From the NCBI GenBank assembly GCA_944323035.1, contig CALUQY010000001.1, positions 129,131 through 193,130 on the forward strand: 64,000 bases of DNA, read 5' to 3'. This document shows, in pieces, positions 14,788 through 61,890 of the stretch (positions within the stretch are counted from its first letter, which is position 1; each line of letters starts with the position of its first letter). Source of the stretch: Candidatus Gastranaerophilales bacterium. GTDB taxonomy: Bacteria > Cyanobacteriota > Vampirovibrionia > Gastranaerophilales > Gastranaerophilaceae. The translations under genes were made by a program, and so were the position numbers. Under the pieces are notes generated by a model. It was not told the origin of the DNA and made no database searches. It was given only the letters and a program-made list of their open reading frames with translations.

Positions 14788-15720
14788 ATGATAAGACGAA
14801 AACTTACCGGCGGATTATATGGAGCAGCTGCGGCAGCCTGTTACGGGATGAACCCTCTTTTTGCTCTTCCTTTAATAAATAACGGCATTGGCGTCAATTC
14901 TGTTCTTTTTTACAGATACGTTTTTGCGGTTATTATCTTCGGAATTTGGGTAAAATTCTTCAAAAAAATCTCGCTAAAAATAACATTGAAAGAATTTTTC
15001 CTGCTTTTCATAATGGGGATTATGTTTTCACTGTCTTCGTTAACGCTTTTTATGAGTTACACCTATATTGACGCCGGAATCGCTTCTACAATCCTTTTTA
15101 TCTATCCGGTACTGGTTGCGGTTCTTATGGCAATCTTCTTTAAAGAAAGGCTGTGCTTTAGCGCAATCCTCTCAATCCTTCTGACAACAATAGGCATTGG
15201 GCTTTTATATAACGGCAAGCTGGGGCAGAGTTTAAACCTCACAGGAGTTCTTCTTGTTTTTTTATCTGCCCTGACTTATGCAATTTACATAATAGGCGTA
15301 AAAAATATTCCGGCAATAAAACATTTAAATACAGCTAAACTCTCGTTTTACGTAATGTTATTCGGACTTCAGGTATATGTTATCAACCTGAAATTCTGCA
15401 CAGAATTACAGTTCATACACACGCCTGTATTATGGCTCAGTGCAATTGCACTTTCAATTCTTCCGACAATCGTATCACTTGAAGCAATGACAATTTCAAT
15501 AAAACTCATAGGTTCAACGCCTGCTGCTGTTCTCGGGGCACTGGAGCCTGTGACGGCACTATTCTTCGGCGTTGTAGTCTTTCACGAACAACTCACACCA
15601 AGAATCATCACCGGAATTATAACAATCCTAACCGCAGTATTAATGATAATTCTTGCGAAAGATAAACATAGAAATAAAGCAGTTCTCCGCCGCTCCGCCT
15701 CGCTGAACCGCGAGCCGTAG
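14788..15720 (+). CDS. EamA/DMT-family transporter with repeat-derived C-terminus
   Basis: 310 residues. About ten membrane spans are arranged as two EamA halves (PVLVAVLMAIFFKERL and PVTALFFGVVVFHEQL mark the end of each half). It has an AGGAG site 10 nt before the ATG. The last 15 residues (NKAVLRRSASLNREP) are encoded by the hairpin repeat that starts at 15673, so the native end of the gene appears to have been replaced by the repeat. The substrate is unknown. Confidence 0.88.
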   Translation: MIRRKLTGGLYGAAAAACYGMNPLFALPLINNGIGVNSVLFYRYVFAVIIFGIWVKFFKKISLKITLKEFFLLFIMGIMFSLSSLTLFMSYTYIDAGIASTILFIYPVLVAVLMAIFFKERLCFSAILSILLTTIGIGLLYNGKLGQSLNLTGVLLVFLSALTYAIYIIGVKNIPAIKHLNTAKLSFYVMLFGLQVYVINLKFCTELQFIHTPVLWLSAIALSILPTIVSLEAMTISIKLIGSTPAAVLGALEPVTALFFGVVVFHEQLTPRIITGIITILTAVLMIILAKDKHRNKAVLRRSASLNREP

Positions 15721-15868
15721 CGTTCCCTCTCGAAAAACAGTTCACTGGACTGTTTTTCTCGGCAGAGTGCTGTCTAATACGCCACTCAAAAGACTCGCTT
15801 GCGTGAGCGGGAGTTGCTACGCAACTCATTCACGCCTCGTTCCTTATCGCGAGTCTTTCTCGGACAAT
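15673..15868 (+). repeat. Modular hairpin repeat, copy A
   Basis: 196 bp from AATAAAGCAG to CTCGGACAAT. Hairpin 1 is GAAAAACAGT, loop TCACTGG, ACTGTTTTTC. Hairpin 2 is a nested stem with outer arms AAAGACTCGC/GCGAGTCTTT and inner arms GCGTGA/TCACGC and GAGTTGC/GCAACTC. It starts inside the EamA gene and supplies its stop codon. It lies between convergent genes. Related copies are at 34699, 44211, 52189 and 54044. Confidence 0.9.
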
Positions 15869-26462: not shown

Positions 26463-26775
26463 GCGCCGAGCAGAGCCACGAAGCAAGGCTTGCCTTGCGT
26501 AGAGTCGAGCGCGCAACGCTCACGCAAGCGCGAGCGGTGGCGTTTTATGCGAGGCGCAATGCGTAAGCCGGTGTAGGCGCAGTGCGACATCACGGGAGTG
26601 ATGACGGCAGGCGACGGAACACTACGATTGCGACGTTTCAAAATTTGCTAGTGTTGATAACACTAGCTTAAATTTTGTCAGGAGCCAAGTGAATTTGGCT
26701 AACGCGAGCGGTGGCGTTTTATGCGAGGCGCAATGCGTAAGCCGGTGTAGTCGCAGCGCGGCATCACGGGAGCAC
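26463..26775. repeat. GC-rich intergenic repeat with two 70-bp direct copies
   Basis: GC-rich in contrast to its surroundings. 26529-26598 and 26703-26772 are direct repeats (70 bp, about four differences). Between them lies a hairpin (26638-26679) with GCTAGTGTT/AACACTAGC nested in CAAAATTT/AAATTTTG. No protein-coding signal is credible here. The repeat abuts the 3' end of the M16 peptidase gene. Confidence 0.75.
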
Positions 26776-34698: not shown

Positions 34699-34893
34699 AA
34701 TAAAGCAGTTCTCCGTCGCCTGCTTGCCCTGCTCCCGCAGGTCAACCCTCTTACCTCTCACAAAACAATTCACTGGATTGTTTTGCTCGGCAGAGTGCTG
34801 TCTAATACGCCACTCGAAAGGCTCGCTTGCGTGAGCGGGAGTTGCTACGCAACTCATTCACGCCACGTTCTTTATCTCGAGCCTTTCTCGGAC
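34699..34893 (+). repeat. Modular hairpin repeat, copy B
   Basis: Hairpin 1: CAAAACAAT, TCACTGG, ATTGTTTTG. Hairpin 2 outer arms: AAAGGCTCG/CGAGCCTTT. Its right end abuts the stop codon (34893-34895) of the minus-strand nucleotidyltransferase-like gene. Confidence 0.9.
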
Positions 34894-44210: not shown

Positions 44211-44363
44211 AATAAAGCAGTTCTCCGCCGCACCGCCTCGCTGAACCGCGAGCCGTGGCGGCTGCGCTGTCTAATACGCCACTCAAAAGACTCGCTTGCG
44301 TGAGCGGGAGTTGCACGCAACTCATTCACGCCACGTTCCTTATCGCGAGTCTTTCTCGGACAA
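44211..44363 (+). repeat. Modular hairpin repeat, copy C (short form)
   Basis: 153 bp. Hairpin 1 is absent; hairpin 2 is kept with outer arms AAAGACTCGC/GCGAGTCTTT and inner GAGTTGC/GCAACTC with a 2-nt loop. It fills the gap between the convergent U32 and phage-like genes and its right end abuts the stop of the latter (44364). Confidence 0.9.
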
Positions 44364-51788: not shown

Positions 51789-51875
51789 TGTCATGCTGAA
51801 CTCGTTTCAGCTTCTGGCCAGCATTACGTGCTACCGGTATCGTTGGACAGATCCCGAAATAAATTCGGGATGACA
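51789..51875. repeat. Dispersed palindrome (GCTGAA...TTCAGC / ATCCCGAA family)
   Basis: Contains GCTGAACTCGTTTCAGC and ATCCCGAAATAAATTCGGGAT hairpins flanked by TGTCAT and ATGACA. A related copy lies at 58163-58249. Confidence 0.8.
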
Positions 51876-51915
51876 TTTCGGATACAGATTGCGCACTAGT
51901 ACCTGTTAAGAGAGG

Positions 51916-52188: not shown

Positions 52189-52374
52189 AATAAAGCAGTT
52201 CTCCGTCGCCTGCTTGCCATGCTCCCGCAGGTCAACCCTCTTACCTCTCACAAAACAATTCACTGGATTGTTTTGCTCGGCAGAGTGCCACTCAAAAGGC
52301 TCGCTTGCGTGAGCGGGAGTTGCTACGCAACTCATTCACGCCACGTTCCCTATCGCGAGCCTTTCTCGGACATT
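52189..52374 (+). repeat. Modular hairpin repeat, copy D
   Basis: 186 bp. Hairpin 1 arms CAAAACAAT/ATTGTTTTG; hairpin 2 outer arms AAAGGCTCGC/GCGAGCCTTT. It interrupts a duplicated intergenic region whose other copy (near 58640) has no insert. Confidence 0.9.
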
Positions 52375-52482: not shown

Positions 52483-54045
52483 GTGTCAATCAATCCAATA
52501 TTGAATAGCGTTAATACTCCGGCTAACCGCAATCCCAAAAAGGATTCGCGCAGGGGAGCAGCACAACCTGAACAACGTGTTAAAACCAGTATTTTCTACC
52601 TTAACGATATTCACGGGAAATCTATAAATATGGAACGGCTCGCAAGCGTTTCTAATACCTTTGACTCGTTCCAGAAATCACAACCGGATGTGGACAGGTT
52701 AAAGCTTTCATCAGGCGATATTCAGCTCGGACACGATGAAAAAATTAACGAGGTCGCCGTTAAATTCCAAAACGCAATCGGGATTCAGGCAACAGCTATG
52801 GGCAACCACGAATTTGACCTTGCCTGGAAAAAATCCGGCAAACTCCTTAACCTCTTAGAACAAATTCAATATAAACTTCTTGCCAATAATGTTTACATAA
52901 ACAACAGCGAAAAAGTTCAAAATAAACTGCAAAACTACACAATTGAGGAAATTAACGGGCACAAATACGGAATTATCGGAACTTCTCCGGTTGATTTAAT
53001 CTCCCGTCTGCGGCAGGGAACGCTTACCGAAAACCTGCGCGTTCACTCACTTGACGAAACGATTAAACAGGTGCAGCGCGATGCCGACGACCTTAAAAAG
53101 CAAGGCGTTGACAAAATCATCCTTCTTTCACACGTAGGTTATGAAGGAGATATTCTCCTCGCACGCGCAACTGACGGCATTGATATCATTCTGGGCGGTC
53201 ACTCTCACGATTTATTGAGAGATATTAAAGAAGGCAAAAACCTTTTCTACTCAAAATCCAACGAACCGGTTATCATAACTCAGGGCGGACGTGACGGAAC
53301 ACACTTTGGAATTTTAAATGTTGAATTTGATGAAAAAGGTATTATCAAAAAAGCACAGAATAATATTTCCTACACAGACTACTTCCGCCGCAATGCGCCG
53401 ATGAGATACATTTTTGAAACTATCCTCGGGAAACCGGAAAAAATCGGCTACATTGAAAGCGCGGAAAAACCGCCGAAAAAAGTTCTCACAGAGCCAACCG
53501 GACACGCAAACTTTATACTTGACTGTATGAAAGAGGACTGTGACGCGGATATTGCAATAATGCCGTCACCTGAAATCCGCGGTTTCTTTGATGAAGGCAC
53601 GCTTGATACAAGAACGCTAAATGAAATTCTGCCGTTCAAAAACAAAGCCGTTGTTGTCAACTACACGGAAAAAGAAATCGTTGACGCAATTAAATTCGCC
53701 TCAACTTCCCTGCAAAACAAAGATAATAAACCCGGAATAATGGAAGTTTCAGGTCTGGAATACAGAATAAACAAAGACGGCGACCTGCTTTCAATGTCCT
53801 ATATTGATAAAAACGGCGCCAAAACACCTATCGACATCAATAACCCGCGGGAAGACAAATTATATAAAACCGTAATAAATGACTTCCACGCGCAGGGTAA
53901 CGATAACTACGCAATGCTTAACAAATTCAATGAAGCCGAAAAAATTTGTGATTACGACATCACAGGCTGCGTAATCAACTGCGTGAAAAAACACAATAAG
54001 CCGATAAAAATTGCAGATGACGGAAGAATTCAAATTGCAGACTAA
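52483..54045 (+). CDS. 5'-nucleotidase/2',3'-cyclic phosphodiesterase family (UshA-like)
   Basis: 520 residues. The calcineurin-like metallophosphatase domain includes YLNDIHGKSI, GDIQLGHDE, AMGNHEFDLAW, ILLSHVGYEGD and GGHSHD. The C-terminal 5'-nucleotidase domain (about 350-510) includes FKNKAVVVNYTEKEI. The start is taken as GTG 52483 (AAAGGG upstream) with TTG 52450 as alternative. There is no signal peptide, unlike periplasmic UshA, so it may be cytoplasmic or exported by another path. Its stop codon is at the first bases of hairpin repeat E. Confidence 0.86.
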   Translation: MSINPILNSVNTPANRNPKKDSRRGAAQPEQRVKTSIFYLNDIHGKSINMERLASVSNTFDSFQKSQPDVDRLKLSSGDIQLGHDEKINEVAVKFQNAIGIQATAMGNHEFDLAWKKSGKLLNLLEQIQYKLLANNVYINNSEKVQNKLQNYTIEEINGHKYGIIGTSPVDLISRLRQGTLTENLRVHSLDETIKQVQRDADDLKKQGVDKIILLSHVGYEGDILLARATDGIDIILGGHSHDLLRDIKEGKNLFYSKSNEPVIITQGGRDGTHFGILNVEFDEKGIIKKAQNNISYTDYFRRNAPMRYIFETILGKPEKIGYIESAEKPPKKVLTEPTGHANFILDCMKEDCDADIAIMPSPEIRGFFDEGTLDTRTLNEILPFKNKAVVVNYTEKEIVDAIKFASTSLQNKDNKPGIMEVSGLEYRINKDGDLLSMSYIDKNGAKTPIDINNPREDKLYKTVINDFHAQGNDNYAMLNKFNEAEKICDYDITGCVINCVKKHNKPIKIADDGRIQIAD

Positions 54046-54280
54046 TAAAGCAGTTCTCTGTCGCCTGCTTGCCCTGCTCCCGCAGGTCAACCCTCTTACC
54101 TCTCACAAAACAATTCACTGGATTGTTTTGCTCGGCAGAGTGCTGTCTACCTCTCGCGAAACAATTCACTGGATTATTTCGCTCGGCAGAGTGCCACTCA
54201 AAAGGCTCGCTTGCGTGAGCGGGAGTTGCTACGCAACTCATTCACGCCACGTTCCTTATCGCGAGCCTTTCTCGGACATT
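54044..54280 (+). repeat. Modular hairpin repeat, copy E (hairpin 1 duplicated)
   Basis: 237 bp. Hairpin 1 occurs twice: CAAAACAAT/ATTGTTTTG and CGAAACAAT/ATTATTTCG. Hairpin 2 arms AAAGGCTCGC/GCGAGCCTTT. It begins at the 5'-nucleotidase stop codon and separates two convergent genes. Confidence 0.9.
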
Positions 54281-58162: not shown

Positions 58163-58249
58163 TGTCATGCTGAACTCGTTTCAGCATCTATCCAGCGTTG
58201 GAAACTACCGGTAACGTTGGACAGATCCCGAAACAAGTTCGGAATGACA
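58163..58249. repeat. Dispersed palindrome (GCTGAA...TTCAGC / ATCCCGAA family)
   Basis: Near copy of 51789-51875; translates as HAELVSAS ... RSRNKFGMT in one frame. Confidence 0.8.
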
Positions 58250-58271
58250 TGTGGACGCAGGGTGGGTTGAC

Positions 58272-60335: not shown

Positions 60336-61712
<1,377 letters not shown>

Positions 61713-61890
61713 CGGATTTTGCACTCTGCCGAACAAACGATTGAGTATCGTTTGTGAGAGGTGCGAAGTGATTGCGCAGCACGAACCCAGCACGAAGTAA
61801 CGCGCAGCTTGTGAACGAACCGTTTTGTGAAAGCAAAACATCGTGAACACAGCGGAGCGTGAAGTAATAATCCAAGACAGACCAAATAAA
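61713..61890. repeat. Diverged hairpin repeat relic after eno
   Basis: Contains the sequence CACTCTGCCGAACAAACGAT, loop TGAGT, ATCGTTTGTGAGAGGT (61722-61762), the reverse-complement order of hairpin 1 of the modular family. A second hairpin (CGTTTTG/CAAAACA) lies near 61815. Too diverged to align throughout. Confidence 0.6.

What the first reader, a model, noticed from the sequence alone, without database searches (positions are those of the whole stretch)
15673..15868. Modular hairpin repeat with compensatory stem changes, five copies
Copies lie at 15673, 34699, 44211, 52189 and 54044, with a relic near 61722. Seen: hairpin 2 has outer arms AAAGACTCGC/GCGAGTCTTT in two copies and AAAGGCTCGC/GCGAGCCTTT (or a CGAGCC variant) in three. 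Hairpin 1 arms read GAAAAACAGT/ACTGTTTTTC, CAAAACAAT/ATTGTTTTG or CGAAACAAT/ATTATTTCG. The relic reads ACAAACGAT/ATCGTTTGT. Paired changes on both arms mean that the structure, not the sequence, is kept. The ends are constant (AATAAAGCAG ... CTCGGACA). This fits a structured RNA or a hairpin mobile element and is not a protein gene.
Basis: seen in the sequence. Interest (0 to 1): 0.85.

Follow-up and report, generated by a model that had tools for sequence, protein, structure and literature searches.

The report
Self-nesting hairpin mobile DNA repeats
These are copies of a small, modular, hairpin-forming mobile DNA repeat that is confined to one order of gut bacteria, inserts into other palindromes and beside tRNA genes, and keeps its two arms complementary in a way that looks like DNA-level repair rather than a conserved RNA.

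Summary
The repeat is real. Five composite copies (151-237 bp) lie where stated; copy 44211 lacks hairpin 1. The 61722 'relic' is hairpin 1 alone, inside a different palindrome. The genome (Candidatus Gastranaerophilales) holds 61 hairpin-1 units against 0 in a reversed-pattern control. Hairpin 1 occurs in 96/117 genomes of the order. None of the sampled genomes outside the order has it.

Arm covariation is very strong: 57 double-sided changes against 1 one-sided, 0/500 shuffles. But G.U intermediates are almost absent and A.C mismatches are not rarer than G.U, unlike tRNA stems from the same genomes. This points to DNA-level arm correction, not a selected RNA.

The units move: copies 34699 and 54044 are empty in two relatives, 52189 in one, and shared copies differ in modules. 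Composites lie mostly on the C-rich replication strand (33/37; repeated in a relative). Hairpin 1 inserts into other palindromes; about half of sampled copies sit within 200 bp of a tRNA gene, and 52/59 of those checked are followed by a repeat of the tRNA end.

Best reading: REP-like, non-autonomous hairpin mobile DNA, probably moved through single-stranded DNA at forks by an unidentified enzyme. The one Y1 transposase gene here is broken by such an element and has its own GTAG REPs.

The parts
15673..15866 (+). composite copy A: head + H1 + H2 (overlaps the 3' end of ORF 14788-15720)
15726..15768 (+). hairpin 1 (H1) of copy A, arms GAAAAACAG/CTGTTTTTC, loop TTCACTGGA
15782..15866 (+). hairpin 2 (H2) of copy A, outer arms AAAGACTCGC/GCGAGTCTTT with an inner hairpin module
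34699..34893 (+). composite copy B (head + H1 + H2); orthologous site empty in G003 and G001
34754..34796 (+). H1 of copy B
34810..34893 (+). H2 of copy B
44211..44362 (+). composite copy C (head + H2, no H1); same insertion in G003 carries a loop insert and an H1
44279..44362 (+). H2 of copy C
52189..52372 (+). composite copy D (head + H1 + H2); empty in G003
52244..52286 (+). H1 of copy D
52288..52372 (+). H2 of copy D
54044..54278 (+). composite copy E (head + two H1 + H2); empty in G003 and G001
54099..54141 (+). first H1 of copy E
54150..54192 (+). second H1 of copy E (one mismatch in the stem)
54194..54278 (+). H2 of copy E
61711..61873 (-). different palindromic repeat (GGATT...AATCC) that hosts the solo H1
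   Evidence: same context in L072, L093, L095

Best explanation
The repeats are a family of non-autonomous, hairpin-forming mobile DNA elements ('self-nesting hairpins') of the order Gastranaerophilales.

Anatomy (shown): each unit is a hairpin with constant feet. H1 is CCTCTC-arm-loop-arm'-TCGGCAGAGT; H2 is CCACTC-arm...arm'-CTCGGACA. Both have the same internal loop beside a CC/GG pair, so the complementary strand carries CCGA(G) at the 5' foot of the hairpin. A head stem (GCAGTTCTCCG...CGGCAGAGTGCTGTC) encloses a small hairpin and, optionally, H1.

Mobility (shown): units insert into intergenic DNA, into genes, into the loops and 3' arms of other palindromes, and next to tRNA genes.

How it moves (inferred): a hairpin in single-stranded DNA at the replication fork is cut and joined into another exposed strand, most likely the lagging-strand template, by an enzyme acting in trans. 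Fork template switching around the hairpins then makes the local tandem and inverted copies seen beside tRNA genes and re-copies one arm from the other. That would keep the arms complementary while their sequence drifts.

No RNA or cellular function is needed for the pattern.
For: Insertion polymorphism: copies at 34699 and 54044 are absent in G003 (94% identity) and G001, and 52189 is absent in G003. The same insertions at 44211 and at C13:8884 differ between G000 and G003 by a hairpin placed in a hairpin loop and by H1 units.

Copy number and reach: 61 H1 in G000, H1 in 96/117 genomes of the order, 0 in the other classes of the phylum sampled. Hits of the genome-collection scan whose titles name an order are Gastranaerophilales, apart from two titled Cyanobacteria and one Heliobacteriaceae MAG; many titles name none.

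Target preference: 81/168 H1 within 200 bp of a tRNA gene against 7% at random, 79/81 in one geometry. 52/59 are followed by a copy of the tRNA end or flank of at least 9 nt, 0 after shuffling; 16 also have an inverted copy. Many other H1 lie inside other palindromes just 5' of the closing arm.

Strand bias: composites lie on the C-rich strand in 33/37 cases (p = 1e-6) in G000 and 20/23 (29/34 in all, p = 4e-5) in G003. Neighbouring genes give no such signal.

DNA-level arm maintenance: 57 double-sided against 1 one-sided change; no G.U excess against a tRNA control of 28:6. At L297 an H2 has become a perfect palindrome, TTGTCCGAGAAAGACTC...GAGTCTTTCTCGGACAA.
Against: No mobilising enzyme was found. 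The single-stranded route is inferred from structure and strand bias only. Solo H1 units in other genomes show no bias against GC skew over 8 kb, although that measure is noisy. There is no conserved target tetranucleotide next to the composites on the side where IS200/IS605 elements need one. The position-0 A.C excess in H1 could also be read as G.U in an RNA made from the complementary strand. In-place differences in modules could be gene conversion between copies rather than new insertion. G000 and G003 share some insertions, so the two strand-bias counts are not fully independent.
Confidence: 0.6

Rival explanations
1. A structured RNA or RNA regulatory element: the hairpins are transcribed with a neighbouring gene and the fold is under selection.
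For: Very stable predicted folds (z about -5) and strong covariation.
Against: G.U intermediates nearly absent and A.C as common as G.U against the tRNA control. No orientation preference to genes: 24 same, 18 opposite. H1 lies on either strand relative to the tRNA transcript. Insertion polymorphism and absence of Rfam hits.
Confidence: 0.08
2. REP elements mobilised by the Y1 (RAYT/TnpA-REP) transposases of these genomes.
For: Hairpins with a constant tag at one foot. Genomes with a Y1 gene hold more H1 (median 10 vs 4, p = 3e-4, no phylogenetic correction). Replication-strand bias.
Against: Neither GTAG nor CGTC tag on H1 or H2. 64 of 95 family genomes in the sample have no Y1 match, including G003 (38 H1), G048 (41) and G066 (38). 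The G000 Y1 gene is flanked by canonical GTAG REPs (GTAGGTTGGGCTTGCCAGCCCAAC) and is itself interrupted by a composite element with an in-frame stop. No H1 lies beside the 12 Y1 loci examined.
Confidence: 0.15
3. No transposition at all: the hairpins spread only by replication template switching and gene conversion between repeats, and tandem duplication beside tRNA genes is ordinary slippage.
For: Duplications beside tRNA genes have no fixed length and include inverted copies. Arms are corrected as in quasipalindrome template switching (PMC8794818). Interiors of shared copies differ while their ends stay the same.
Against: Whole composites of 151-334 bp with constant ends sit at unrelated sites, some of which are empty in relatives. 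The same H1 feet are kept in most genomes of the order sampled. Target preference is strong.
Confidence: 0.2

Closest known systems
REP / REPIN elements with RAYT (TnpA-REP) transposases (PMC3733652, PMC8266576, PMC6006769)
   Same: Short hairpins with a constant tag at one foot, tens of copies, non-autonomous, found mainly between genes, tolerance of insertion inside genes.
   Different: Tag is CTCTC/CCGA(G), not GTAG or CGTC; no cognate transposase found; prefers palindromes and tRNA genes; units nest inside each other.
Double-hairpin / repetitive hairpin-forming elements of mitochondria (Allomyces, sponges; PMC2800124)
   Same: Single and tandem hairpins with complementary arm changes, insertions inside genes without frameshift, presumed mobile, no known enzyme.
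   Different: Bacterial chromosome, order-wide conservation of the feet, tRNA-end duplications, replication-strand bias. Sequence relation not tested.
Rickettsia palindromic elements (RPE; own knowledge)
   Same: Palindromic repeats that can sit in frame in protein genes; here a composite sits in frame in cbiM of G000.
   Different: Mostly intergenic here (3 of 46 inside ORFs); different lineage and sequence; modular and nested.
Small dispersed repeats of Nostoc-type cyanobacteria (own knowledge; original paper not in the library)
   Same: Very small nested repeats in the sister lineage.
   Different: H1 is absent from all sampled genomes of other classes of the phylum; the sequences themselves were not compared.
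MITEs
   Same: Short, non-coding, mobile, many copies.
   Different: No terminal inverted repeat between the two ends and no constant target-site duplication.

Membership tests
REP superfamilies (GTAG / CGTC tagged) | Unpaired GTAG or CGTC motif at one foot of the hairpin | tested here: not met
   H1 feet CCTCTC / TCGGCAGAGT, H2 feet CCACTC / CTCGGACA in the copies read
REP superfamilies (GTAG / CGTC tagged) | Cognate RAYT gene flanked by the repeats | tested here: not met
   12 Y1 loci hold no flanking H1; the G000 Y1 is flanked by GTAG REPs of another sequence
IS200/IS605-derived elements | Conserved target tetra- or pentanucleotide next to the left end on the active strand | tested here: not met
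   Position table of 49 flanks: after CTCGGACA only AT-richness; only AAT before AAAGCAG is constant, and it may belong to the element
IS200/IS605-derived elements | Orientation bias with the replication fork | tested here: met
   33/37 in G000 and 20/23 in G003 on the C-rich strand, with GC skew as the proxy for fork direction
IS200/IS605-derived elements | Cleavage by a Y1 HUH transposase on single-stranded DNA | not testable with these tools
   Needs biochemistry
MITE | Terminal inverted repeats | tested here: not met
   AATAAAGCAGTTCTC and the complement of the other end, TGTCCGAGAAAG, do not match
MITE | Constant-length target-site duplication | tested here: inconclusive
   Three empty sites: short or no duplication, no common length
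Structured non-coding RNA (Rfam) | Match to a described family | tested here: not met
   Window scan: only three tRNAs at gathering threshold
Structured non-coding RNA | Covariation with tolerated G.U pairs | tested here: not met
   Covariation present, but no G.U excess (control 57)
Integron attC sites | Cassette array with an IntI integrase | not tested
   Copies are dispersed, not in one array; IntI was not searched
Double-hairpin elements | Adjacent hairpins, mobile, complementary arm changes | tested here: met
   this is likeness in structure, not proof of descent

The most novel reading that the evidence does not exclude
A new class of single-stranded-DNA mobile element with its own undiscovered enzyme. 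It recognises hairpins by a CCGA(G) foot, targets folded tRNA arms and other palindromes, and leaves the target tRNA intact through a local duplication, so that arrays of hairpins grow beside tRNA genes in nearly a whole bacterial family.
Probability: 0.2. Interest if true: 0.8.

Novelty: new variant of a known kind. Interest (0 to 1): 0.58.

Why it matters
It gives a well-populated natural case (hundreds of hairpins, many genomes) in which covariation that would pass as proof of a conserved RNA appears to be produced by DNA processes. That makes the argument 'covariation equals selected RNA structure' directly testable with the G.U/A.C ratio. It also describes a REP-like mobile repeat of Gastranaerophilales that nests in other palindromes and marks tRNA genes, and so points to an enzyme or fork process still to be found. 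No earlier description turned up in the held library, which does not prove that none exists.

Tried and rejected
Y1 transposase as the mobiliser: positive but uncorrected association, no flanking H1, broken gene in G000.

Protein neighbours of non-tRNA H1: the only recurrent cluster is pilin-like N-termini in 5 loci, judged incidental.

Target-site duplication from flanks: none with a constant length.

Solo H1 against 8-kb GC skew: no bias.

IMG/VR pattern scan: 76 matches, only 1 with paired arms, the rest chance. Annotated phages and plasmids: no match to the composite.

Autonomous version (head...ORF...tail) in the stretches read: none; the one long gap inspected holds an ordinary large element with a degenerate H1, plus an unrelated perfect-palindrome H2.

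Insertions present in G003 but empty in G000: 7 testable sites, all shared, so the reverse direction could not be shown.

Literature searches for Gastranaerophilales palindromes or nested hairpins beside tRNA genes found nothing specific.

Full report
WHAT WAS CHECKED. The five copies are at the stated places and share the stated ends. They are modular. A head (AATAAAGCAGTTCTCCG...) pairs with the tail of hairpin 1 or with GTGGCTGCGCTGTC. An optional hairpin 1 (H1) has constant feet CCTCTC and TCGGCAGAGT. Hairpin 2 (H2) has constant feet CCACTC and CTCGGACA and holds an inner hairpin. Copy 44211 has no H1, 54044 has two. The 'relic' at 61722 is an intact H1 in another palindrome. Folding is far better than shuffles (z about -5).

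HOW MANY AND WHERE. The source genome (1.94 Mb, 41 contigs) has about 60 BLAST places and 61 H1 by pattern, against 0 for the reversed pattern. H1 is in 96 of 117 genomes of the order. In a phylum-wide sample it was found only in the same order. The genome-collection scan returned many records titled Candidatus Gastranaerophilales, two titled Cyanobacteria, one titled Heliobacteriaceae bacterium, and many without an order name. One H1 lies in a Mu-like phage contig with Mu portal, F protein and terminase genes.

IT MOVES. At 34699 and 54044 the relatives G003 (94% identity) and G001 have the uninterrupted sequence; at 52189 G003 does. No constant target duplication is visible. At 44211 and at C13:8884 both G000 and G003 carry the same insertion, but the G003 copies hold extra modules: a hairpin inside the head hairpin's loop and one or two H1 replacing 4-11 nt. 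New insertion or gene conversion between copies can both explain that.

WHERE H1 GOES. In 115 loci from other genomes, 81 of 168 H1 lie within 200 bp of a tRNA gene (7% expected), and 79 of these have the same geometry: the tRNA gene upstream of H1 in H1's own direction, whichever strand the tRNA is on. The usual layout is: intact tRNA, flank, a hairpin or an inverted piece of the tRNA, a partial tRNA copy, H1 replacing about 4-6 nt of a D-, anticodon- or T-arm, then the rest of the tRNA end and the flank again. 52 of 59 distinct cases repeat at least 9 nt (0 after shuffling); 43 have a left piece and 16 an inverted piece. Several arrays hold two to four units, sometimes with different H1 arms in one array. 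Many H1 away from tRNA genes sit inside other palindromic repeats, just before the closing arm, or in the loop of H2.

RNA OR DNA. On 38 distinct H1 of equal length the ten stem pairs show 57 double-sided changes and one one-sided change; no shuffle reaches the observed covariation score (0.419 vs 0.155) and sliding the partner destroys it. If the fold were kept as an RNA one would expect G.U intermediates. In the same loci tRNA acceptor stems have 28 G.U to 6 A.C. H1 has 10 to 26 and H2 7 to 7. An H2 that has become a perfect palindrome by copying one foot onto the other was seen (L297). Template switching at inverted repeats homogenises arms and makes double changes (PMC8794818, PMC8604942). 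Orientation to neighbouring genes is random (24:18) and gene-pair context matches background. I therefore read the covariation as DNA-level arm correction. The complementary strand could still make an RNA; this was not excluded.

STRAND BIAS. Composite elements lie with the read strand on the C-rich strand in 38/46 cases in G000 (33/37 where |skew| > 0.03) and in 29/34 (20/23) in G003. Gene direction in the same stretches does not predict this. The complementary strand, with CCGA(G) at the 5' foot of both hairpins, would be the one exposed on the lagging-strand template. That is how IS200/IS605 elements work (PMC6006769), so single-stranded mobility is the leading idea; it is inferred, not shown. 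Some insertions are shared by the two genomes, so the two counts overlap.

ENZYME. Y1 (PF01797) genes occur in 37 of 117 genomes; H1 counts are higher where one is present (median 10 vs 4 within the family), but several genomes with about 40 H1 have none. The G000 Y1 gene is flanked by GTAG REPs and is interrupted by a head+H2 element that introduces a stop. H1 and H2 lack GTAG/CGTC tags, so they are not REPs in the sense of PMC3733652, although they may work like them. The mobiliser remains unknown.

CAVEATS ON THE NUMBERS. The order and phylum samples are draws, not complete sets, and the genomes are assemblies in contigs. The 38 sequences were chosen as distinct sequences of one length, partly, and their relatedness was not modelled. 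The Y1 comparison has no phylogenetic correction.

VERDICT. A non-autonomous, self-nesting hairpin mobile DNA family that is largely confined to Gastranaerophilales: a new variant of a known kind. The covariation is genuine, but its reading as conserved RNA structure is not supported.

Noticed in passing
L298:8794-9864 (G000 C13) and L049:1360-1694 (G003): A composite element sits in frame in a CbiM (cobalt uptake) gene of G000 without a stop; the longer version of the same insertion in G003 contains an in-frame stop.
   Followed up: partly
L257 (G000 C23, about 15.9 kb): The only Y1 transposase gene of G000 is flanked by GTAGGTTGGGCTTGCCAGCCCAAC repeats (canonical GTAG REP), holds one such repeat inside it, and is broken by a composite element.
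   Followed up: partly
L184:3425-3500 (IMGVR_UViG_3300011008_000426): A Mu-like phage contig carries one H1 between baseplate-region genes, a possible vehicle between hosts.
   Followed up: partly
window 51789-51876 and 58163-58250: Another palindromic repeat, TGTCATGCTGAACTCGTTTCAGCATCT...GGGATGACAT, in two copies.
   Followed up: no
window 26524-26598 and 26698-26772: Tandem pair of 75-nt repeats, 174 bp apart, GC-rich.
   Followed up: no
L080, L099, L110, L123, L134, L108: H1 sits at nearly the same point of the GTCATTCTGAGG...CTCAGGATGACA palindrome (GGATCCTTCGC^GGCTCAGGATGACA in most), as if that palindrome were a preferred slot.
   Followed up: partly
L135, L074, L109: A fixed twin hairpin, GAAATTTCTAAATTCGCATGCTCATTAAGAAATTTC followed directly by H1, inserted in CCCTAACC...GGAGGG-type repeats: a second composite type.
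   Followed up: no
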